Source: Phanerodontia chrysosporium
Taxonomy: Eukaryota > Basidiomycota > Agaricomycetes > Polyporales > Phanerochaetaceae
Length of the DNA stretch: 64,000 nucleotides
Reading direction: 5' to 3'
NCBI GenBank assembly: GCA_001910725.1
Contig: MJGA01000011.1
Location: 620,001 to 684,000, forward strand
This document shows, one piece after another, positions 36,587 to 64,000 of the stretch (within the stretch, counting starts at the first letter, position 1; the number at the start of each line of letters is the position of its first letter). The translations under genes were made by a program, and so were the position numbers. Under the pieces are notes generated by a model. It saw only the letters and a list, made by a program, of their open reading frames with translations, did not search any database and had not been told where the DNA came from.

Positions 36587-39500
36587 TTATAGCGACTCCC
36601 AGCCGCCGTTGTCTACCGTGCTTTCGAGTCTCCGGGCGATGAGTGTCGGGATGCCGTGATGCAGCCACAACCGGCGTACTTCTTCCCAACGGGCGTGATG
36701 CAGGTATTGCCTCCGACCACGCCTACCACGGCAGCAGCGTCAGTACGGTGGCCGATACGGAAGCAGGTGCGCTCACCTCATGGAAATGTCGGCTTCTCCG
36801 TGAACATCTAAGTATGGCGACTGCCCAAATGTGCCGTTATTCGCATAGAGATACAACATCGAGCAGCGCTTCACAAGGAAGTAAATGCCTATAGGCCCCG
36901 CGCAACTGCGAGCAAGTCTGAGCACCTAATGATGGTTCATATAGGCAAGGACTTACTCTCTCATGTGCATGTTGCAATCGCCTTTGCCTTGGTTCGCACG
37001 ATCGACGCAACAATGGCTCTGGAAGCAGACGGTGGTCCCGCAGACGAGGCAGATGGCTGCGTCCTGCGGTACTGTCTTGCAACGCGGGCAGATCATCGTC
37101 TTATCCTGCTCTAAGAAGAGGGTGTCCAAGATCAGCGGAAGCTTGACGATCTGGTACACCAGCGGGTAGTCCAGCACGACGCCACAGTTGAGCTGCGACG
37201 CCGCCGGCGAGTGACCGTAGTGTGCGCACCAGCCCGAGAGTGCGTTCTGTAGAGTGTCCTGGTTCGGCAGATCAGATAGCGGTGGGATGTCCAGCATTTT
37301 GAGGAGCCGGCGGTATTCGCAGACGCCGTCGTCCATGGAGGGTGAGGGAAGGCAGAGGGGAGAATTGCACGGCATAGGATGGCTGCGCGGCGCAGGAAAG
37401 GGAGTGTAAAGGTATACATGAGTTTTTCTATCCTTGCGTCGCCGAATGCCTGGAAAGCAACTTCGGCAGCGTGTTCAAAGACGGGTGATGGTCGAATGAC
37501 AGACATGAAGAACATCCTGATATCGCCAAAGATGTCTTCATACTGCCGTGGCGGCGGTGTCGCTGGGGACACTGAGCGAGTCTTGTTCAAGATATAGAGG
37601 AGGCCGACCACAGTCCGAGCCAAACAGGCGTAGTATGTGAGGACGAGGACGTGCTTGATAATTTCTGGAGCGACACTCGCTGTCTCAACCAAGATGGTAA
37701 AAGGATCCCGGAGGAGGAGCGGGTAAGAATACGACGTGAATGAAGAGCGACTCCATTCAGGCAGCAGCCGCTTGATGATGGCTTGTTTGACCGCATCACG
37801 CCCTTCGTCAGGTCTGCCCTTGAAGTGCAGTGCGGAAAGTTGGGCGAGAGAGGTGACAAGGCCCTGGATCATCTTGCTCTGTGATTCTGACAGGGTATCC
37901 GCAACTGTGCTGCCAGGGGCACCAGTACCCCGCTGAGCGACTTCTAAGCACGCGATGGTGTAACCGACCAACTCCTCGGGGAGGTACATCCCAGCTCCGC
38001 GTTCGCCCATCTCCGGCTCGGGTCGATCCCGTAAGTGCCGGGTCTGTGACGAGACGGTCTTGACGACGGCCATGATCGAATCGACCATCTTGAGTGCGGA
38101 AGGCAGTTCTTGGCCGTATGGCTTCACGAATTGTGCATACGCCGGATCCATCGCACCCCAAAAGACAAACTCGCCTGTGCCATTCCGCGATTGCAGAGAG
38201 TCCAGAAGCGGATCCGGTTTTGACTTGAGTATGCTGATGCCAGCAGCACGAATCCAGTCGGGGAAGGGTACAGAGTTCAACTCGACGGTGTTGGGCGTCG
38301 TGACCACGGGGATGATTGCATTGCCCAAGCTCTTGCAGAGAGGACAGATGTACTCCTTCCTGGGGATACTCTCGGGATGATTCCGCGTGGTCTGCGTGCG
38401 ATGTCGCTGGCGGATGGACACGTTGTAGACAACGAAGCATTCCAGGTGCATCAAGTGCGTGCACACCGATGCGTGCAGGCCGAAGCGTGTTGACTGGGAC
38501 GGGAATCCCTCGAGGCTGACGGTGCGGGCCTCTGCATCGGCCTTCGCGGGAGGGAACGAGCTGTCGATCGGCTCGGCAGACGAGCGATCCATGTTCTCTG
38601 GGGCAAACAAGACATCGTGCATATGTCCCTGTTGCGTCTCTGGGTATCGACGAAGGAATCGGCTCGGCTGAATGAGTGCAAGCGCACCCCAACCGCGCGA
38701 GTTGTTGAGCTCCTCTTGGCAGACAATGCATGTGCCGTAGGAAACGGGGGTGTCCGTGTGCTCCATGTCTTCTTCGTCCTCTTCGTCCTCGAGGTCTTCG
38801 AACTGATTGGCGAAGCTCGCCTGCTGGGCCTTCATCTGCTTCATGAGAGCTTCCTGGCGCGCCTTTGCTGCGCGCTTCTTGGCTTCCTCCGGGTCAACCT
38901 GCATCGCAGGCTCTGGAGCCCTGCGTGCCTGGACCTCCTGGGGCTGGTGCGCCTCGAGCTGCGACAGGATCCACTGCACCCGGGACTTGTAGTTCTTGTG
39001 GTACGTGGTGTTCCGTTCTAGGGAGCATATGGCGTCAAGCAGGGTCTGGTTCTCCTCGAAGACCTTGTTGACGGCGATGTAGCTGAACGATTGAGGCCGT
39101 TCAATGAGGGCAAGCATCAACAGATGGAGACATTGGTCTAGAATCGCTTCGGCGGAAGGTGGTGCAGATCCCGTGGCCTCGGTGATGCTGATAACGTTAA
39201 AGATGCCGTAGAAGATGATCTGGAGCAGAACCTCGGATTCGAAGACGGAAGACAGAACGGTGAACGGCCCGTGGGTGATGTTCAAAGGTTTGGGTACGAG
39301 CACTGGATCCTCGACCCCGGTGCGCTTCTTCAATCGATTCTTGAGCACGACCTCGACCTCTTCGCGCTTGTTCCGGGTATGATGGTAGAAGAAGGGGTTG
39401 ACTTCGTCGAAGGCCTCGTCCTTGAGCTCGTACATTCCAGAGTCAGACGTTGACTCGGGTGCCTTGAAGTTGGCCACTTCCTTGAGGACACGATCGAAGC

Positions 39501-42313
39501 AGACATCGTCCGACTTCCGTTCAGCAACGCGCTTCACCAGCTCCGTGTATGTGCAAGGGCCCAACGCAAGCGCGTGCACGATCTCCCGCCTAACGGACTG
39601 CGGTAACGGCATTTTCGTCGCGTTCGCGGTCTCTGTGAGGACAGTGATGAGCACGTAGAGGAACTCCTCGACCATGTTCGCCATCTGTGTGTTGTCGTAG
39701 ACAGGGTGGAGGGTGGCTCCGGAGAAGTAGCCTGTGAGCTGGAACCTGTCCAGCATGGTGACGATGACGGAGTTGGGGTCGAGGATGACCATAGCAGTCT
39801 GCAAGATGAACAAGTCCTGGTCGTAGCAGAGTTCACGCAGCATGAAGTCGCGGTAGTGCATTACTTGCCCTCGGATAGCGAAGCCGTTCCGCACCCATAG
39901 GCCGGCACGTATCTGCGCTACCATCGCGATGACTGTAGTATGCGGCAATAAGCACCGTGCAGCAATCCAAATCGCTTCCAAACGCACCTCGCAAAGGGTA
40001 GTCAATGATAGTCTGGATGGCCTGCACACTCGCATTCCGCAAGCAAACGTCACGCAGACTGCCCATTCCAATCTCCCGCAGGTGCTCATCGTCCAACAGG
40101 TCGATGTGCTTGAACAGTTCCGCGAGCAACCATTGGAGCGAATGGTGGAAACTGACCCAGCCCTCCATGACGTCGAAGTCAACGACTTCGTACGTCGTGT
40201 CGCCAAAGTTGACGTGGTGGAAGGACACACGGGGGAACCGCGTCGGGTCCCGCTCCTCGTCGTGGAGAGCTGAGACCATGAGAATGTGGTGCATGACCGT
40301 CGAGATCGCAGTCACAAGCTCCGCGGTCGTCGCCCTCGAGAACGCTTCGCCATAAACCTTGATGACCCGCGAGAGCGACAGGGTGACATTGAAAACGCTG
40401 ATCCAGACGTCTGTCTCGTACTCGACGTGACTGACCACAGCGCGCTTGTTGGGGTTGACGCACATGAAGAGCTGACATACCCGCGCGAACTGCTGAATGA
40501 ACTCGCGATTGTGTGCGATGAGCTGCTGCACGGGGTCATTGTGGCAGAGATAGCGAAGATCGCTGAAAATAGTCATGAACCGCTTGGACTTGAAGGGCAT
40601 AGCGTCGACATCGACCTCTGCCTGCGGGTTGCTCGTAATGACGATGCGATTGTCCTGTATTTGGTTTGTGAAGAAGGACGTAATGATAGAGAGAAGTCGT
40701 GATACAATGTTGTGGTTGCGAACAAGGTAGAGCGCCACAGAGGGTACCGTGAACAGCTGGAGGGCGAAATACTTGATTGATGTCTCTGCTTCCCGGTCAG
40801 TCAGCAGGTATGCGTCTATAACTCTGCTGTATACGTTGGCAAAGTGGGTCGCTATGGATTGATTGGTGAGATACTCGGAACCACGAAGACTAACGGACGT
40901 ACCCATAGCCAGCTTGTGATCATGGCTCAGGTTCAGCAGGGAAGCATAGATCTCCTTAAAGTTCAGCCGCGGCTTCTTCCACAGGCGAACATGGTATAGG
41001 AAGAGCCAGTCAAGCCTCGCTGGATCGCTCACATCCGCAATGAAGGGGTGCGAGTCCGTAAATCCGCGTGCATACGTCTGCCTTCTCGGTGAGAGCAGCT
41101 CCTGTGCGATGATCTCCCGAATGGCCAAGGTGTCGGATCCGAGACGGCTACGCGTGAGGTCGAGGAGCCACTCGATGATGACCGCGCTAACCTGTTCCCG
41201 GAAGGTGTCGTATGCGCGCCGGATGGTCACGCCAAGATCTATCTGCTGTATCGTCTGCCCAATCTCAAGTAGGCGGGGAATGTTGCTGTTCATCTCGATG
41301 ATCTCCCGACCTTGTTCGTCGATCCTGTCCGCAATGTCCGATGCCTCCTCCTCCGTGCGGCCGGTCAGATCGACGAGCAGCCGGATGACCTCGTCGAACG
41401 AGTGCTTGTCGTCGTTCCAGAGCACGACGCAGAACTGGTCCTTCATCATCATGGGGTCGCCCGTCGGCTGCTTCCACAGGTGCTCCTCCTTCGATGGCGC
41501 GATGGTGACCTCGGGAGAGTAGTCCAGGGTGTCTAGGATGTAGTCGATGGCGTATCCTATCGTCCTGCTCATCGACTCGCGCAGCTCGTCCGGAATCGCT
41601 GCGCGGTCGGGGTAGTTCTTGACTGGTGGGACCTCGGATCCGGGAATGACACGGGGCGTCATCTTAGGCGTCGACTGGATCATCCGTGCAGTGAAGTCCT
41701 TGATGTGTTCGATGCTCTCGGCGGTGGGGGGATGGTATGGGCAGTCGATGGGGGTCCGCCACGCCTCGACGTCGCCGCAGTCGCAGCACCCGCCGGACTG
41801 CTGGGCGATGAAGAAGCTGACGCTGTGGTCCGTGTGGTCCGTCGCCTCGAAGCATCGCGAGCAGAACACGCAACTATCGTCGAGCGCACAGTCCCTGGGT
41901 GAACACGGTCAGTCAGACGACACAGTCCCTGTGCGGGATCGCCAATGTGGGACGCACTTGCACCGGAAGCACGCCTCGCCCTTCTTGAAGATGTGCCCGC
42001 ACGGCCGCCCCGGCGTGACGGACGGCTCCTTGGCGGTGCCGGCCTTTGCCTGGACCTCGCTGAGCGTCACGTTGAGCGGGAGACTGGAGTTCGAGTTGGG
42101 CAGGAAGAGGTGCGCATACGACCCCCAGAACGAGTCGTAGAGCTCCGCGAGGATCTCAGCCCGTGTGGACGGGGTGAAGACGTACTTGCGCGACCCGGGC
42201 ATGGTGTCGAGCGCAAAGCGCAGCCGCGCGAGCGAGTTGGATTGGCTGCCGCGATCGCGAGGCTGCATCGAGCCCAGAAACTTGGACGGGAAGAACGAGG
42301 AAAGAGAGGACAT
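36587..42313 (-). CDS. UBR1: UBR1-type N-recognin E3 ubiquitin ligase, one frame break
   Basis: Five exons (42313-41958, 41894-39988, 39932-36957, 36905-36777, 36722-36587) encode 1834 residues after one repair. UBR1 recognises destabilising N-terminal residues and, with an E2, sends proteins to the proteasome. The UBR box lies at about 105-180 (PCGHIFKKGEACFRCKDC ... GGCCDCGDVEAW). A ClpS-like N-domain lies at about 270-340 (FCVVLWNDDKHSFDEVIRLL). A RING-H2 lies at about 1150-1290 (GTCIVCQEELNN ... CTHLMHLECFVVYN ... YICPLCKSLGN). The C-terminal cap holds CPRCKTVPQDAAICLVCGT and YLDVHGEADISMRRGRRQYL. A charged, coiled stretch precedes the RING. Near 37332-37361 one base is missing in a C-rich run, where AILPS must shift to reach DDGVCEYRRLL. 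The gene is tail to tail with GluRS. Confidence 0.95.
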
Positions 42314-54090: not shown

Positions 54091-54721
54091 TCACTCCTCG
54101 ATGTAACCCATCTGGACGGAATCAATAGCGTACTCCCAGAACCCGTCAGGCTGAAGACCATAATCAACAGTTGGCCCAGCGAATTGGGCCAAATGGACGC
54201 ACCGGACACCCTTCAATAGTCTCGATGACGGCCAAAAATACTGCTCCCTCGGTCAGTTGAGAATCTTCGAGATTTGGCATCTGCAAAGTCGACGGCGGTG
54301 GCGTGCCCTGTGAGGGCATACCTGGATGGACAGAAGTTTACACGCTCGCATTAGAAGAATCAACAAGCTTTCAGAACGTACCAGCGACGTTGATGACCAT
54401 ATACTCCCCGAAATAATGCAGGAAGTCGCTGAACCCGTAAGTGGAGTTCAGGTCAGATGCTGTCGGCTGATGGTCCAAGAGATAGACATCAACGGGGGTG
54501 TAGGCGGGATGGCAATGGTTCCACTCAGGAACGGTGATGTCGAATGCCACATCCTCGCCTGCGGTCATGAAAGTGCCGGCATCGGGGGAAGTAATGCTTC
54601 CGGGGCTCTCGAGTACGGCTATCGGCAATCCCGAAGGTGGCCCTTGCCGCTTCACTGGTGACGCAGAGACCAGAGTCGCCATTACTGAAGCGACCAGAGA
54701 GAAGAACGTGATGAAGTACAT
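54091..54721 (-). CDS. Small secreted protein, tandem family copy A
   Basis: Three exons (54721-54382, 54321-54203, 54150-54091) give 172 residues with no frame break, so this is the cleanest copy. A signal peptide (MYFITFFSLVASVMATLVSA) is followed by SPVKRQG, a Lys-Arg site of the Kex2 type. The mature part holds LESPGSITSPDAGTF, TVPEWNHCHPAYTPVDVYLL, LNSTYGFSDFLHYFGEYMV, QGTPPPSTLQMP, VIETIEGCPPDGFWEYAIDS and the end VQMGYIEE. Only two cysteines remain after the signal peptide (NHCHP, EGCP), so one disulfide is likely. The pattern I-T-x-P-x-x-G-T near the N-terminus recalls Kre9/KNH-like beta-sandwich domains, but this is weak. The core promoter has GTTAAAAG about 60 nt upstream. I know no function. 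Confidence 0.82.
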
Positions 54722-56546
54722 GAGTGGATGTGCGGATGACTTGATTGACACTGGCAGCACTCACCTCTCGACACCGTTCTTTTAACGTGCCCGACGGTCT
54801 CAGCGCACTCGCGGCCGCATCGCAGCTAGGCTGTGACCTTGGTTCATGTCTGCACCGCATGGTAGAACTACGAAGGGACGCTTGCGGCCATAAATAGCCT
54901 CCATACTTGCACGGATTGTGCATTGCTACGGCGCAAGTTCCGCACGGCACTGAACTTCATACCCTGTAGCTCCAGGAAGAGCAGCTACCCGGTAATTAGT
55001 GCCAGACGTAAGAGATTGTGGGATGACGCAGACATACAGTTCGTGGCCTCATTACTATTCGGAGTGCTGTACTGACGCACTGGTATTGCTAGCATTGAGT
55101 GCACGCATACTGGAAGGCAGTGCATGTTGTGAAGGAGTGCCGTTAACGCGTCAAATCCAAGAGGTAACACGCAGGTACGTACAGCTTCGTGTCGCCTAAT
55201 ATGCAGCCGGACCGCTACCCGAAACTGTCCGTCGCAGGGTTCAGTGAGCTGCGGACGATACCGACTCAAGAGAGAGACGGGGGATCAATGTGAACCGGTC
55301 TACAACTGCAGGTGGTGGTGTTATCGTCAGCATACTGTGTCGCTGCATGCCCCCACGTACACGTCATGCAGAATATGTTGGGTCAAGTAGAATTGCTCTA
55401 TGATCCGACTGGTGTAAGTTCACAATCAAAGGAAGACATAGAGGGGGAAGAGTACTTACAGGGAAGACCATACAGTCCTGAGCTACTCTCGGCTGCTCTC
55501 CGTGGGCCCGAGTTTTCGCGCCTTAAGTTATGGATCAGCGATAAACTGTAAGGCAGCTTGTATAGAATCACATGTGTGTATCAATGCGCAACGAGTCAAT
55601 ATCTCATGACTGATTCGCAGGAGAATATACATCGTACCGAAGACGGCTGCTCTGCGTTAGAAGTCCGAGTCTAGGACTTCGCCCGTCGTCATGCTTGAAC
55701 TCTAAATCAAGATGGAACAGAGCGCATAGTAATCACCATACACTTGCATAGTTGACGTGCTGAGAAATGTATACCATGGCATCGCTTCAGTTGCTTTACA
55801 GTACGTTGCTTACTTTGCCCATTCTCGCTGTACTGGCAAGCGTTCTCGGTGTACCTTTCTCCCCTTCTCTCGAAGGAGGGGATACGCCTGATATTATACT
55901 ACCCTGATATAACTTAGTCACAATACGTTGAATTGAAAGGCCAGCCATACCTAACGATTTGAACGACCGTCGAGCGTGGAAGCGTCAACGCTGTAGGCGA
56001 CTTTCGCGTGCGGGCTCTCCCTTTCCCGTCGGTGATCGCCGAAAATCCGAATATAGTATGTATGCTTGATTGACTTAGTACCATCCTTGCCGCATTGATC
56101 CTCAGAGCAACGACGTCGCAAGACATGCGGGAGCAGCGGTGGAAGTTATATATCATAGCACTTGAGAATAGGATGCATCATGCCACGGTTGTCTGAGAGT
56201 AGCGCCCTTCCAATCTATGCGTCTATTCAGTGCAGCCTCGCAGGTGATACTCTGTAAGATGGTCTGGACGGCGCAAAGTTATGTAAGCTCCGTGAGACAG
56301 GCATTGGCCGAGTCTGGCCTGTGGTGGATACAGTTCAGGGCCTTGGGTCTCATGCCTACGCTTACGATGTTCCGAACAAGCCCGAAGTGATGTTTATGAG
56401 TATGCTATTCACGAACTAGAATGTACAGTATTCTACAAACAGTGAAGAGTAGGTTTCATACTGGGATATGACAAGTCTAGAAACGTCATTGAGTGTATCG
56501 ACATGGGAACAATCCAGAATTTAATAGTCCGGACGTTGAGCAGCTC
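54722..56546. other. Gene-free, less GC-rich stretch between array copies A and B
   Basis: About 1.8 kb with no supported gene, and visibly less GC-rich than the housekeeping blocks. A plus-strand open frame ending at 55551 (RPYSPELLSAALRGPEFSRL) looks weakly protein-like but has no partner exon. No further copy of the secreted family was seen. Confidence 0.4.
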
Positions 56547-57164
56547 TCAGGCATAGGTCAACGCTACTGAATCGATCGCGTACTCCCAGAAGCCGTCTGG
56601 CTGGAATCAGGTGGTCAGTCTAGTGCAACAGGGGCTACAAAACTCTAGATTAGGCTTACCGGACAGCCCTCAATCGTTTGAATTGTAGCCAAGTACACTG
56701 CTTGTCCCGATGCCCGAGCCTCGGGGCGGTCAAGCTGGAGGGAGGAGGCGTGCCCATGGGCGGAAGACCTCCTACACAATGCGTAAGGAGATATTGCGAG
56801 AATGCCAGGTTCTCGCAGGCTTACCAGGGAAGTTATTGACCAGATAGTCCCCGAAGAAGTATAGGTAGTCATTGAAACCGTACGTGGAGTTCAGGTCAGA
56901 TGTCGTGGGCTTATGGTCCAGGAGGTATGTGTTGACGGGCGTGTAGCCAGGGTGACAGTGATTCCACTCTGGAACAGCGACGCTGAATATGAAGGGTTGG
57001 CCTGCGCCTATGACGGTACCATCCGAAGGAGCCGTGATACTTCCAGGGCTCTCAAGGGTCACGATTGGAAGGCCCCCAGGTGGACCCTGGCGCTTTGATG
57101 GGGATGAAAAGGCGGGGGCCGCGAAAATGGCAGCGGCGAGCGCAATGAAAAGTGTGAAGTACAT
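56547..57164 (-). CDS. Small secreted protein, tandem family copy B, one frame break
   Basis: Three exons (57164-56825, 56771-56660, 56600-56547). Exon 1 has exactly the length of copy A (340 nt). The signal peptide (MYFTLFIALAAAIFAAPAFS) is followed by SPSKRQG. The mature part reads LESPGSITAPSDGTV, VPEWNHCHPGYTPVNTYLLD, LNSTYGFNDYLYFFGDYLV, MGTPPPSSLTAP, VYLATIQTIEGCP and PDGFWEYAIDSVALTYA. In exon 2 a run of four Cs (56723-56726 on the complement) must be five for SSLTAP to continue as EARASGQAVYLA. The rest is intact. The minus-strand TATAAAAG at 57221-57228 lies 57 nt upstream of the ATG. Two cysteines are conserved as in copy A. Confidence 0.8.
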
Positions 57165-58804
57165 GAGTGAATGAGTAGGATGTCGAGGTTGGTGTGTGTT
57201 GGTGTCGCCGTAGGGCGACGCTTTTATACTCGTCTGTTGGTCCCGACGTGCTCGAGAGCCGCCTCGCAGCAGAGCTATGCGGTTCCTTACATCAACTCGA
57301 TGGCACAGCTTGGAGCTCTGGACGATACTCACCGTCCGAGGCATCGCCTAGATCGGACCAGCAGGTTGCATATTACCTCTACAACCACGAGCGCGCAGCT
57401 CGAGAGGAGAGGGAACGGGCATGAAAGCCGTCACCGTCGGCGGCCGTCGAGCGACGAACGACGCCAGGCGCTCCAGAGGATAACACGCCCCAGCTATGAT
57501 CAGCGTTGTACAAACTTGCGGGTATATGCATGAAAGCGCTGAGTGATTTAAGCATCGCCTCGAGGCCTGCAGTCGCGGCATCTCCAGGTGAGAAAGCAAG
57601 TCGCGGGATGGCCTGTGAAGAAAAGCTTATCAGACTTATTACCAGGATTCAAATGAGGGACTGGCAGGCACATTGTGCCTCGTTGACACATACGTAGATG
57701 TAACAATGCAGACACGCGTTGGACGCCATACGGTCACCGTGGGAGGGTTATTGGCCCGTCTGCCACGGAGCCGACTGGAATGGTACGTGGCCGCTTTGTA
57801 GCGTTCCCTGCATCGAGGACGCTGAGGCGATTTCAAGCATGTAAGTGTACCCCAGTTACGGAGTCCAGCATGCATGCAAGACCCTGCGAGCAAGCAGGAA
57901 CACATAGAATTGCAATGTCCGTTGTGGTTCCTCTTGAAACTCCCGCGAAAAGATGCGTGTCCCTGTCAATCACCGTTAGGTATTCGCGTCAATACACCAT
58001 CGTGTCACTACAGAGAGCTTTGACCAATGGCAACCAAATCAGTTGTGGCCTCTGCGCCTACGCTGAGTGGAATTGGGGTGCAAGCGGATGCGTTGTTGGG
58101 TAGCCTGACAAATGACGTCCCTTCGTGTCGCTTTCTCCACTAGTAGACACCATCCGATCGAACACGGGTATGACACGGTCTTTCACAGTTCTATTTCACA
58201 CGGCTGCCGATGCGCTTCATATTCCCAAGGGGCAGTAACCTGTGTGTGGCACGCACTCAGGACGACTTCACCGCCTAAGGATTACTTCACGCACCTCTGG
58301 TGAAGCATTTCCCCATGCACAGTCTCCCCTATGCGAGCATTCACGCTGCCTTTCGGGCCCATGCGTCAACGCCCAGCGAAGTTCGCCTGGGGAAGAGCGC
58401 GACCGATGGGAGTGCGTTCTGCCACTATGGGCGTGCGAGACGCGGTCGGGCGCCGCCCAGGGCGCAAATGGCGCGGGCCCTAGAGCTCTCTGTGACCATT
58501 CTTCAGCAGTGCAACTGATGGCTAGACCCAGCTATGAGGATGGTCGCTCGATTGCAGTCGTGGTACAAGCGAGACGGGGAGCGACGCCGCGCTGAGGGAG
58601 TTGATCGAGGTTACCCTCATCCATGTTTGGAAAGTGTTGTCATTCGTTCGCAGCTCTGCACCCAGGCTTCCAGTACCAAGTCCGACAGGCAAGCACGTTT
58701 CGTAGACCGCAGCGAATACATTTTCTACTTTACTCTATAGTCCTATGAGTAGTCCTGTCCCTGAGATCCCGCTGCCACTACAATCCCGGCTGCATGCTCG
58801 ATGG
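57165..58804. other. Gene-free stretch between array copies B and C
   Basis: About 1.6 kb. The left end carries the copy B promoter (TATAAAAG on minus at 57221-57228). No supported gene follows, and I found no degraded copy of the secreted family. Confidence 0.45.
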
Positions 58805-59391
58805 CTATTCGTCGTAAACATACTCGAGGTAATTAATGCCGTATTTCGTGTATCCATTGGGCTACGATATAGTGAGCAGTCACGCACAGGAGAGGGTTAG
58901 TATAGCTTACCACACATGAGCTAACAGTCGCTACGGTGACGAGGTATACTGGCTGCCCAGAATACGTAGCACCAAGGTCAGGCATCGTCAATGATGACGG
59001 CGGCGGCGTGCCCATGGACGGAAGGCCTGGAGAGTACCTGTTATTATCTCGCATAGGCACCTAGTTTAGTAAGGCACTGACCATCCACATTTCGAATAAG
59101 GTAGCTCCCGAAGAAATACAGGTAATCATCGATGCCGTAAGTGGAGTTGAGGCTGGACACTGTTGGCTGGCTGTCGAGCATATAGACGTCTATCGGCGTG
59201 TAGCCAGGATAGCAGCCAGGAAGCCATCCGCCAGGGGTGAACGGGGTCGACTGGCCTTCTGCCAGGAGAGTTCCAGGCGACCCAGGGGTGCCAGTCACTG
59301 TAATGGGGACACTCTGCCGTTTAGCGGGGAGTGCAGCAGCCCCTGCTGCAAAGGCGGCGAGGAGGATGAAAATGCTCTGTGTGAAGTACAT
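58805..59391 (-). CDS. Small secreted protein, tandem family copy C (most divergent)
   Basis: Three exons (59391-59082, 59026-58911, 58861-58805) give 160 residues, all in frame. The signal peptide (MYFTQSIFILLAAFAAGAAA) is followed by LPAKRQS. The N-terminal strand region is shortened (TVTGTPGSPGTLLAEGQS). The first cysteine sits in LPGCYPGYTPIDVYML rather than NHCHP. The core LNSTYGIDDYLYFFGSYLI and MGTPPPSSLTMPDLGATYSG is kept, followed by VYLVTVATVSSCV and PNGYTKYGINYLEYVYDE. ETIEGCP has become ATVSSCV, and the PDGFWEYAIDS block is changed, yet both cysteines and both intron positions remain. GTATAAAT lies about 55 nt upstream on the minus strand (59442-59448). It probably kept the fold but diverged in surface and partner. 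Confidence 0.8.
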
Positions 59392-59947
59392 CGCTGGAGT
59401 GCAGGTGTGGGCTGCTGCAAAGTCTATGAACTTGGCCTGGATTTATACTGTGCGCTGCGCGTTCGGCGTGTTCTAACCTGACAGTCGCGCTGAACGGCCT
59501 CCGAACAGACCGGTCATCGCAGTTGGCAGCATGCATCACGATTGTGGCAGGCCCTGGATTCATAAGACAGGAGGGAGTCAAGAGCGTCACCCCCTGAGCC
59601 GACTGTAGACTGGGCTGGCCGCGTTCGTCCCTGAGGCGCTCTACACAGCGGGTGCGGGACTGCATGGAACGGCCATGAAGGCCATTGAACCTTGGAATAA
59701 TGAACGGAGCGCATAGCAGTGCGCAGGCCAATCAATGCTTACATTGGTGAGAAGGAACGCACGCACCCGCTTTCCTGTCCAGAGCGCCGCCTTATCAGCG
59801 TTTTGTACGTTTGAGCCCTTGATGCGGCTTGACGTGCCCTGGCTGTCATCGGTATAATGGGAGTTGGATTGACAAACTGGTCTGACACAGTCTCGGTCCA
59901 CATAGTGCGTAGCAATCTAGTTATGAGAGTGGCCGACTGCGAGTCGC
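59392..59947. other. Gene-free stretch between array copies C and D
   Basis: A 556-bp gap that contains the copy C promoter. No other feature was found. Confidence 0.45.
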
Positions 59948-60565
59948 TTATTCATTATAGATCAATGGGGCAGAGTCAATGGCAAACTCGAAATGGCCAT
60001 CGGGCTAGAGCATGTTTGTCAGCAGCAGCCGCACAGTCATACAAGTCGGCGTACCGGGCAGCCCTCAATAGTCTCAATAGTCGCCAGATAGACGGTTTGT
60101 CCGATGAATGATGCTCCAGCTCCGGAGTCGTCAGCGTGGCCGGCGGAGGTGGGCCCATAGAGGGCAGATCTATGGCACGAATAACTAATGTCAGCGTCCG
60201 AAGGGGTGTACAAGCTGACTGTACGAACTAGGGAAGTTGTAGTGAACAAATTCTCCGAAGTAGTACAGGTAGTCGGTAAATCCGAAGGTGGAATTGATGC
60301 TCGCCACCGTCGGTTGAGAGGCGAGGAGATACGTGTTGACGGGCGTGAACGGATCCTCGCAGTGGTTCTGCTCGGGAACCGCTATGCCGAAGGCGAAGGG
60401 CTGTCCTGCCTTCACGGCGGTGTTGTCTGCGGGCGCAGTGATGCTCCCGGGGCTCAGCAGGACGAATGGCTTCGTTCCCACAGGCCCCTGCCGCTTGACT
60501 GGGGTAGCGAGCACTGGAGTAGCCAGGGCGGCCACGACGAGAGCGAAGAACTGGGTGAAGCGCAT
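59948..60565 (-). CDS. Small secreted protein, tandem family copy D, one frame break
   Basis: Three exons (60565-60229, 60169-60055, 60004-59948). The signal peptide (MRFTQFFALVVAALATPVLA) is followed by TPVKRQG. The mature part reads LLSPGSITAPADNTAVKAGQ, VPEQNHCEDPFTPVNTYLLA, INSTFGFTDYLYYFGEFVHY, MGPPPPATLTTPEL, VYLATIETIEGCP and PDGHFEFAIDSAPLIYNE. In exon 2, TPEL continues as GASFIGQTVYLA only if one G is added in the CTGGAG at 60113-60118 (complement). That restores the LGA-x-x-x-GQ match to copy C. The minus-strand TATAAAAG lies 52-60 nt upstream (60617-60625). It is divergent from the OPT transporter gene. Confidence 0.8.
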
Positions 60566-61829
60566 GAGTGAATGGGAATGTAGAACTTGGGTATCGGTCA
60601 TACTACTCGGAGGACTGCTTTTATACGAGCCAGCAGCTGCGATGGGCTTCGCACTTGTTGGAGGCGATGGCTGCGTGAGACCAAACCCCGGCGTGACAGA
60701 AGACGGTATATCCCAACTGTCTCTGGTGCATCCGGTATATCCGTACGCCAAGCATTATAGTCCGTTGTCCGACCGCTGTCTCGCTGAGTCCAATTATGCG
60801 TATAGAACATAGTCCTGCTTGTAAGCATAGCGATTGACGTGGTGAGGTAGCACTCACGGGTGACTTGGTCGAGCAGAGCTGCCTTGAATGCGACATGCGG
60901 ATTCCTGGCTCGCATGCGCTCTTACCTACCACTTCAAGCAAGTACCTTGGTCAGTATGATTCAGTAGTAACAGTACGATGAGGGTTATTACCGACCGGAC
61001 TGTCTCGTACGTGAAAATCGCCAAGTTCGAGGCGTATCTCTGATTGGGAGAGGCAAGTTAGAGTCTCGCAGGACTTGCTGGGAACGCTCGGTGAACTACC
61101 GCCAATGCGGCGAAAGGTACCACGCCCGGTAGCGTCACTCATGATGTTACCAGAGGAAGTTGCAGGTGCCCTGCATCAGTGCAGAAGCCCCGGAGTCTGT
61201 GAAGCTTCTCAGGGTTCACGAGATGCAACCGGGTATCTGTCAAAGTCGCCATTTGAAAGACAACAATGCCAGCGATACCCACGGGAGGTATATAAAGCGG
61301 TTATCTGCGGAGATGCTGCGTGAACTCCATGGAACCTCTGTGATACCTTGTGCTGAGCACGCCATGGTTGTTTCTACATGGATTAAGAGTTCTTCAGATG
61401 ATTTTGAGGTAATATCACCGAGCCAGTAGCCAATCCATCCCTCGGGAACCCGAAACGCTCGGGCAGAAAGCGTGACGGGAGCACGGAATTTGGGGTCTTC
61501 AGCCACAGAGGCAGGCGAGGTCATTTGTCTCGGTCAAGTGGCGACAACTGGTATGTATGACTGAGGTCCATGTTGTGCACAGTGTATAGACTGCACAGGC
61601 CTGGCCATGCTGGCTGGACGTGGGATAGCAGAGGACAAACCGAGGATGTGATAGAGTTTCGGGATAGAGGTTGTAGATGCCGAGTTTGGGACTTGTCGAC
61701 ACGGAAATTCGGCGAACGTCGAGCGTAGCGCTGCTCAGGCACCGCCGTCGGCCTGCCTATCACTTGAGCTTGAACCTTGGGCATGGCCTCTTCGTCTCTC
61801 GACCCCCCATCTCCTGCATAGCCTGGTCT
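60566..61829. other. Region between the secreted array and the OPT gene
   Basis: About 1.26 kb. It holds the copy D promoter at the left and the OPT promoter at the right. The middle carries two protein-like minus-strand frames (61240-61524 and 60951-61142) that cannot be joined with confidence. Confidence 0.4.
61240..61524 (-). CDS. Possible small hypothetical protein
   Basis: An ATG-initiated frame of 94 codons opens MTSPASVAEDPKFRAPVTLS and includes VPEGWIGYWLGDIT. Its composition is more protein-like than neighbouring frames. GTATCA after ACSAQ could be a donor leading to a shorter exon. No family, signal peptide or partner is recognised, and the frame could be chance. Confidence 0.2.
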   Translation of the reverse strand: MTSPASVAEDPKFRAPVTLSARAFRVPEGWIGYWLGDITSKSSEELLIHVETTMACSAQGITEVPWSSRSISADNRFIYLPWVSLALLSFKWRL

Positions 61830-64000
61830 ATGTCTGACACAGACCCACCGTCCGGTCCAACCCCAGAGCCTCCCAAGGCTCTCTACGAGTTCGATTCCGT
61901 CAAGTGGGAGCTCCAGCAGGACGCAGAGCATGGCGGCACTGGTCGTGCGTGATATCTCTATTCGACTGTGCACACCACATTGATCCCACCCGTCCCCCTA
62001 GCCGTTGTCGTGAGTCGCCTTCTGTCCCATGTGCACTGCGCTTCTTGACGCTCGAGGCAGAGCATAGTAGACGACGAGTACTACGGAGATCCAAATATCG
62101 ACCTGGACGCGGAATACCTCGGTAATGTCCGTTATCTTGCTCTCACGACGCACGCTAATCCGCAAGGCGAGTAGAAGATGAGTCTCCGTATCCCGAAGTA
62201 CGCTCCGCCGTGGCCAATACGGACGACCCCGACATGCCCGCGGGGACGCTACGCGCATGGATGCTCGGGCTGCTATGGGCAATCGTAATTCCAGGCGTGA
62301 ACCAGTTCTACTTCTTCCGATTTCCAAACATTACCGTGGGACCGGTATGTCTTGGTTGCACGCATCGCGCTTTCCACGAACTCAACCGCGTCCGCAGCTC
62401 GTCGCGCAGCTTCTGACATTTCCCCTCGGACGTCTGGTTGCCCGTTTCCTCCCACACAGACGAATATTTGGGCACAGTCTCAACCCAGGGCCATTCACAA
62501 TCAAGGAACATGTAGTGGTCACGATCATGGCGGGCGTTGGTGCGGTCTCTGCTTACGGGGTAGGCATTCTGTTTTGGAGGTTCCTCACAGTTTGTCCATA
62601 TGCTCATGTACTCGTTAGACTGATATCGTCGCGGTCCAGCGATTCCAATACAACCAGGTGTATGACTTTGGATACCAGTTCCTGGTAGTGATGTCGACAC
62701 AACTCATAGGATTCTCAATCGGCGGTATCGCGAAGCGCTTCCTTGTTTCGCCGCCTTCAATGAGTAGGTGCTTCTAGCCTGTCTTCGAGCATAGGCACTC
62801 ACCTAGATGGACCAGTCTGGCCTTCGAACCTGGTTTATTGTGCCCTGTTCAACACTCTACATGCCCAGTGGTATGTGGGGTTTGGCAAGCGGGGCGGCGT
62901 CAGCCGAGAGCGGTTCTTTGTCCTAGCTTTTACCGCTGCCACGGTCTGGTGTGAGTGCTTTGTCTCCTCCCGACGATTGGTTCGCTTAACCTGGCTGGGA
63001 AGACTTCGTGCCTGGCTATCTATTCACAGCCCTCTCGTACCTCTCCTGGGTATGCTGGATAAGACCGAATGATGGTACGTGCTGCCCTGATGCGACCCTT
63101 GTGCTACCCTGATGGAGCTTATGATGTATCGCAGTTGTACTCAACCAGTTGTTTGGTTATCAAAGCGGCCTCGGCATGTCGCTGATAACACTTGACTGGT
63201 CCCAGATCGCCTTTATCGGCTCCCCCTAGCCACGCCATGGTGGGCAGAAGGAAACGTAGCCTTCGGCTTCGTTTTCTTCTTCTGGGTCATCGTGCCTCTA
63301 CTCTACTACACGAATGTCTGGGACTCGCAGTTTATGCCAGTCCTCTCCCGGGGGACCTTCGACAACACTGGAGCGCCTTACGATGTCAACCGCATCTTGA
63401 CCGACTCTGCCTTCGATATGAAGAAGTACCAGGGATACAGTCCCCTCTTCCTGCCGACGGCATTCGTTATCTCCTATGCCCTCAGCTTCGCTAGCGTAAC
63501 GGCCACGATCGTACACGTCTTCCTGTACTATCGCAAACAGATCATGGTGCAAGCCCGCCGCTCCCTCGCAGAGCAGCCCGACATCCACGCGCGGCTCATG
63601 TCACAGTACCCGCAGGTCCCCGACTGGTGGTACCTGTGTATCTTCGTGACCATGTTCGCCTTCGGGGTCATTGCCATCGAGATCTATCCGACGCAGATGC
63701 CGGTGTGGGCCTTCGTGCTCGCGCTTGCGGTTGCATTCGTCTACACGATCCCAATAGGCATCATCCAGGCGGTCACCAACCAGCAGATTGGACTCAACGT
63801 GATCACGGAGCTGATCATTGGATATGCTCTCCCGGGACAGCCCCTCGCGATGATGTTGTTCAAGACATGGGGATACAATGTAAGTACGTTCACCGTCTGT
63901 ACTAGAACTTTACTTACCATCTGCTACAGACGATGTCTCAGGCGTTGACATTCACTTCGGACATGAAGCTAGGGCATTACATGAAGATACCGTGCGTTTC
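61830..64000 (+). CDS. Oligopeptide transporter (OPT family), 5' part, one frame break
   Basis: Nine exons are visible (61830-61941, 62068-62121, 62172-62344, 62398-62559, 62619-62763, 62807-62950, 63003-63074, 63135-63879, 63930-63991 and on). OPT proteins are proton-coupled importers of small peptides such as glutathione at the plasma membrane. Family blocks are VRSAVANTDDPDMPAGTLRA, FFRFPNITVGPLVAQLLTFP, NPGPFTIKEHVVVTIMAGVG, QRFQYNQVYDFGYQFLVVMS, RFLVSPPSM, GPVWPSNLVYCALFNTLH, LSYLSWVCWIRPNDVVLNQL and LPTAFVISYALSFASV. PVWAFVLALAVAFVYTIPIG and GLNVITELIIGYALPGQPLA follow, with at least nine membrane spans. In exon 8 the C run 63222-63226 must gain one C: as written, IGSP is followed by TAG, while the repair gives IGSPLATPWWAEGN. 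The last exon stops at a donor GTGCGT near the window end. Confidence 0.93.

What the first reader, a model, noticed from the sequence alone, without database searches (positions are those of the whole stretch)
54091..60565. Tandem array of four paralogous small secreted proteins of unknown family
Four minus-strand genes in 6.5 kb share three exons with the same intron phases, a signal peptide, a Lys-Arg site about 5 residues later, and blocks such as LNSTYGF, GTPPPS and EGCPPDG. I recognise no named domain. Tandem birth with divergence (copy C) is typical of secreted proteins under changing selection, such as host- or rival-facing factors. A role is inference. What is seen is the array and the shared architecture.
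Basis: partly seen in the sequence, partly recalled or inferred. Interest (0 to 1): 0.85.

Follow-up and report, generated by a model that had tools for sequence, protein, structure and literature searches.

The report
White-rot fungus secreted-protein gene array
Four neighbouring genes in a wood-rotting fungus encode small secreted proteins of a family without a Pfam domain, whose predicted shape most resembles a plant-pathogen effector called NIS1, although two of the four copies look broken in this assembly.

The parts
54091..54721 (-). Copy A: exons 54721-54382, 54321-54203, 54150-54091; intact, 172 aa; Lys-Arg at 24-25; after it 147 aa with 2 Cys, 1 N-glycosylation sequon, pI 4.05
   Evidence: 158 of 159 residues identical to intron-free public protein P0001
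56547..57164 (-). Copy B: exons 57164-56825, 56771-56660, 56600-56547; frame broken in exon 2 in this assembly
   Evidence: exon-1 product 113 of 114 identical to P0002, a full-length intron-free relative whose frame is intact
58805..59391 (-). Copy C: exons 59391-59082, 59026-58911, 58861-58805; intact, 160 aa; after Lys-Arg 135 aa with 2 Cys, 1 sequon, pI 4.05; lowest identities to the other copies
   Evidence: identical to intron-free public protein P0012
59948..60565 (-). Copy D: exons 60565-60229, 60169-60055, 60004-59948; frame broken in exon 2 in this assembly
   Evidence: in the tree set its highest exon-1 identity to another row is 65% (P0018)
54779..54785 (-). TATA-like box of copy A (TTAAAAG, starts 64 bases before ATG)
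57223..57228 (-). TATA box of copy B (TATAAA, starts 64 bases before ATG)
59442..59447 (-). TATA box of copy C (TATAAA, starts 56 bases before ATG)
60620..60625 (-). TATA box of copy D (TATAAA, starts 60 bases before ATG)

Best explanation
The array holds old paralogues of an Agaricomycete-wide family of small secreted proteins. Shown from sequence: a leader-like start, a dibasic site, a conserved Cys pair, shared exon structure, one array in this genome. Predicted: a compact all-beta domain closest to NIS1 among solved structures. Inferred: the leader is cut off, a Kex2-type protease cuts after Lys-Arg and leaves an N-terminal Gln, the two cysteines form one disulfide, and the protein acts outside the cell by binding another protein or a wall glycan, not as an enzyme. 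In a saprotroph the likeliest partners are the fungus's own hyphae, rival microbes or plant debris rather than a living plant's immune kinases. The NIS1-like shape would then be an old secreted scaffold that plant pathogens re-used.
Confidence: 0.5

Rival explanations
1. The proteins are plant-facing effectors like NIS1 or BASIDIN/MrB1, acting on living plant cells in an undetected endophytic or early wood-colonising phase.
For: Best PDB fold match is NIS1; MrB1 and BASIDIN cause necrosis on plants (PMC13358014 and PMC10380501, abstract and passages); Nis1-domain proteins are reported in the polypore Ganoderma boninense (PMC9409662, passages).
Against: The fungus is a wood-decay saprotroph (recalled); the family occurs in many wood-decay species (names, lifestyles recalled); no Nis1 profile match; BASIDIN's closest group lacks cysteines, this family keeps two.
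Confidence: 0.12
2. They are self-facing regulators like the Pleurotus ostreatus ssp1-6 family, secreted at a growth-phase switch and tuning the ligninolytic system. This is a more specific form of the best explanation.
For: Similar size, secreted, multicopy, white-rot host. PMC5674062 and PMC7105643 (passages and one section) report that ssp knock-down lowers aryl-alcohol oxidase expression, and cite over 40 P. chrysosporium small-secreted-protein genes induced by oak extracts.
Against: The published table of Ssp1 homologues lists no Polyporales, so this is likeness of role only; no expression data for A-D were seen.
Confidence: 0.25
3. They bind a polysaccharide or a metal, as CBM- or LPMO-like beta domains do.
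Against: Foldseek TM-scores by query length are 0.40 or less for the listed LPMOs, against 0.47 for NIS1; the expected mature N-terminus is Gln, not the His of a copper brace (brace recalled); none of the 11 invariant positions in 38 rows is His.
Confidence: 0.13
4. The array is decaying: B and D are true pseudogenes, leaving A and C as the working pair. This concerns gene state and can hold together with any of the others.
For: Frames of B and D are broken in exon 2; no near-identical spliced relative of D was seen among P0001-P0064.
Against: A frame-intact, spliced relative of B exists (P0002), so B is intact in some strain. The distant paralogue L022 also seems to change frame near its start, which would fit small assembly errors.
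Confidence: 0.3

Closest known systems
NIS1 effector family (Pfam PF19271; structure 8xgl)
   Same: Small secreted fungal protein, all-beta; best PDB match of both models
   Different: 14% identity, no Pfam Nis1 match; host here is a saprotroph (recalled); binding to BAK1/BIK1 untested
BASIDIN / MrB1 of Moniliophthora
   Same: 162 aa, leader, no known domain, basidiomycete; MrB1 has nearly the same NIS1 match statistics
   Different: BASIDIN and its closest relatives have no cysteine; this family has a conserved pair. Direct sequence comparison was not made
Pleurotus ostreatus poSSP family (ssp1-6)
   Same: About 18 kDa, multicopy, secreted, white-rot fungus, no identifiable motif but a leader
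   Different: Published homologues are mostly Agaricales and Auriculariales, none in Polyporales; fold and sequence not compared
UniRef automatic names 'Ubiquitin ...' (P0005, P0011) and 'Phosphatidylgl...' (P0048, P0049), cut short in the output and read by me as But2-type and PG/PI-transfer names
   Same: Names given to four family members
   Different: No such Pfam match in the members scanned; the names look unsupported

Membership tests
NIS1 (PF19271) | Match to the Pfam Nis1 profile | tested here: not met
   Not among matches up to E 10 for copy A or for 11, 23 and 38 members (filters drop most matches above E 0.1); own-genome search 0 matches, though no control genome rang
NIS1 (PF19271) | NIS1 fold | tested here: inconclusive
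NIS1 (PF19271) | Binds plant kinases BAK1 and BIK1 | not testable with these tools
   Function as stated in PMC9409662, passages
BASIDIN/MrB1 | Small secreted basidiomycete protein without known domain | tested here: met
   A 172 aa, C 160 aa; Pfam 0 families for A and for P0012, identical to C; named relatives are Agaricomycetes by my reading of their names; secretion judged by eye
BASIDIN/MrB1 | No cysteine residues | tested here: not met
   42 of 46 filtered members have exactly 2 Cys after residue 25; the other 4 have 3 or 4
BASIDIN/MrB1 | Sequence similarity to BASIDIN | not tested
poSSP (ssp1-6) | Sequence similarity to P. ostreatus Ssp1 | not tested
   No Ssp1 sequence was at hand; published homologue table lists no Polyporales
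LPMO / X325 copper proteins | N-terminal His of the mature protein (recalled) | tested here: not met
   Residue after Lys-Arg is Gln in 4 of 4 copies; this assumes dibasic processing
But2 (PF09792) or ML domain (PF02221) | Match to the Pfam profile (accessions recalled) | tested here: not met
   Neither listed at E up to 10 in 38 members, which included P0011, P0048 and P0049, nor in the 11 and 23 that included P0005

The most novel reading that the evidence does not exclude
NIS1, BASIDIN/MrB1 and this cysteine-paired family are branches of one ancient fungal superfamily of secreted beta proteins that first served saprotrophic life (hyphal competition or self-signalling); plant-immune suppression is a later use. 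P. chrysosporium, in which six searches found only this array and one distant paralogue, would then be a clean genetic model for the original role.
Probability: 0.3. Interest if true: 0.7.

Novelty: new variant of a known kind. Interest (0 to 1): 0.45.

Why it matters
Small secreted proteins make up a large share of fungal secretomes and many have no known domain or role (PMC7105643, abstract start and passages). A family that is widespread in wood-decay fungi, has a fairly confident predicted fold, and resembles a core plant-pathogen effector gives a testable route to what such 'effectors' do where there is no living host. It would also give a named family to many 'hypothetical protein' entries.

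Tried and rejected
Pfam scans for a named domain gave nothing firm: Big_7 (2 of 11, 3 of 23, 1 of 38 members) and Big_9 (L022 piece), both bacterial Ig domains, at E 0.019-0.28, hint at an Ig-like fold only; VanW in 2 of 38 and single weak matches to DUF1816, Proteasome, Cyclophil_like, DUF3275 and the Metchnikowin family were treated as chance. PDB sequence search gave 0 matches with the first profile and 4 weak ones (E 0.19-1.6; three membrane cofactor protein/CD46, one GTP-binding protein) with the broad profile; treated as chance. The viral fold library gave mainly phage proteins, best E 1.5e-4 to an uncharacterised protein of Achromobacter phage Motura, several others named Ig-like or fibronectin-like; not followed. 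'Changing selection' was not borne out by dN/dS; of six YN00 estimates two gave numbers, one returned none, three failed. A splice reading that rescues B or D was looked for by eye and not found. Searching papers by gene identifiers gave 163 papers, and the 20 listed held only the number 376376 by chance; NIS1 with Phanerochaete gave 0 papers. No paper on this array was seen in the listings of searches, which cover open-licence PMC only. PMC10705924 (passages) gave nothing to compare. Folds not listed by VIA-align are not excluded.

Rows dropped: A3 used 23 and A6 22 of the 33 proteins then known; A7 38 and A8 34 of 64, leaving out fragments and rows that read into introns (A3 kept some of the latter, A6 kept four N-terminal fragments). 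The tree used 28 of 64 plus the four copies, cut to the exon-1 part; the cut for Hermanssonia P0039 came out short (77 residues), so its place is unsure. The cysteine and dibasic counts use 46 of 64 by a length and motif filter.

Full report
What is there. Each has three exons; intron 1 is in phase 1 and intron 2 in phase 0 in all four, and the eight introns are 49-60 bases long. Copies A (172 aa) and C (160 aa) are open from ATG to stop. In copies B and D the exons as assembled do not stay in frame: homology to the other copies is lost in exon 2 and stops follow downstream. The similarity is far above chance: in exon 1 all six pairs score 183-400 against at most 56 in 200 shuffles each, with 44-69 identical residues over 99-112. 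TATA-like boxes start 56-64 bases before each ATG in 4 of 4.

Is it expressed? A search of 5.8 billion proteins found P0001 (158 of 159 residues identical to A), P0002 (113 of 114 identical to exon 1 of B, and full length with an intact frame) and P0012 (identical to C) in contigs of 1074, 1164 and 1242 bases from one source, marked lgn, with both exon junctions spliced. Other proteins of that source seem to read into introns; P0022 and P0026 look like spliced and unspliced forms of near-identical genes. So the intron-free forms probably come from RNA libraries. This is inference: I could not see the contigs. No such relative of D was seen. P0002 shows that B is intact in some strain; whether the break here is an assembly error, an allele or decay cannot be told from this assembly. 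The distant paralogue L022 also appears to change frame near its start, which would fit assembly errors.

Which organism? A peroxidase exon of the same genome (L040) matches manganese peroxidases in the PDB; the two printed alignments (1mn1, 1mn2) show 2 differences in 123 positions, one of them the start codon letter, and 1mnp scores the same 265.4 bits. I recall these as P. chrysosporium, so the genome is that species or very near. It has 39.0 Mb in 145 contigs. The best named relatives of the array are from P. sordida and P. carnosa.

How wide is the family? Three searches gave 64 proteins (in one search only the 7,995 candidates sharing most words were scored). None has a precomputed Pfam domain in those tables. 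Named members come from Phanerochaete, Phlebiopsis, Hermanssonia, Irpex, Trametes, Ganoderma, Gelatoporia, Obba, Dichomitus, Lentinus, Mycena, Favolaschia, Stygiomarasmius and others; that these are Polyporales and Agaricales is recalled. In an alignment of 38 of the 64, 11 positions never change, among them two cysteines, and the Pro-rich loop (PPP..L..P) is nearly constant. Of 46 that passed a full-length filter, 42 have exactly two cysteines after residue 25, and 28 have a dibasic site early on. In this genome six searches, with A, P0034, P0016, P0003, P0043 and P0059, find the array only, plus one weak locus on another contig, L022 (E 1.4e-3 and 0.12). A profile comparison supports a 74-residue piece of L022 as a distant relative (hhalign probability 97.0, E 1.1e-10 over 71 columns); that piece lacks the first cysteine.

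History and selection. A tree of exon-1 products puts A and B together (94/82) and C with P. sordida 142600 and 142590 (94/95), both just under the tool's mark of 95/80, and leaves D unplaced. So the array does not look like a burst of recent copying. NG86 gives dN 0.26-0.57 and dS 1.36-2.80 for the six pairs: constraint on average, with saturated dS. This cannot exclude selection at single sites.

How it most likely works. Shown: leader-like start, dibasic site, one cysteine pair, shared gene structure. Suggested: transcription of three copies. Predicted: the all-beta domain. Inferred: Kex2-type cutting, one disulfide, action outside the cell by binding. In a dead-wood decayer the partner is more likely the fungus itself, a rival or plant debris than plant immunity. 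I give the effector-like binding reading 0.5, a self-facing regulator 0.25 as a more specific form, a glycan or metal binder 0.13, and a plant-facing effector 0.12. These overlap and are judgement.

Surroundings. Of eight neighbouring open frames scanned, four matched Pfam: an OPT oligopeptide transporter beyond copy D, and on the other side a GT25-type gene and two frames of a UBR1-type E3 ligase; the other four matched nothing at E 0.01. Nothing there points to a shared pathway.

Noticed in passing
63292-63945 (+): Part of an OPT oligopeptide transporter gene (PF03169, E 1.6e-58), beyond copy D on the other strand.
   Followed up: no
37135-41869 (-): UBR1-type E3 ubiquitin ligase in two overlapping open frames (zf-UBR, ClpS, UBR1-like wing, PRT6_C); probably one gene with an intron between.
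   Followed up: no
L022 (G000 contig C64, about 120547-120789): Distant paralogue; a 74-residue piece without the first cysteine has hhalign probability 97.0 to the family. Its open frame does not join the upstream ATG frame as assembled.
   Followed up: partly
L040, L041 (G000 contig C68, about 80-88 kb): Two peroxidase-family (PF00141) matches about 7 kb apart; the L040 exon is nearly identical to PDB manganese peroxidases.
   Followed up: partly
P0048, P0049, P0005, P0011: UniRef automatic names beginning 'Phosphatidylgl...' and 'Ubiquitin ...' are given to members of one family; Pfam supports neither, so these names look wrong.
   Followed up: yes
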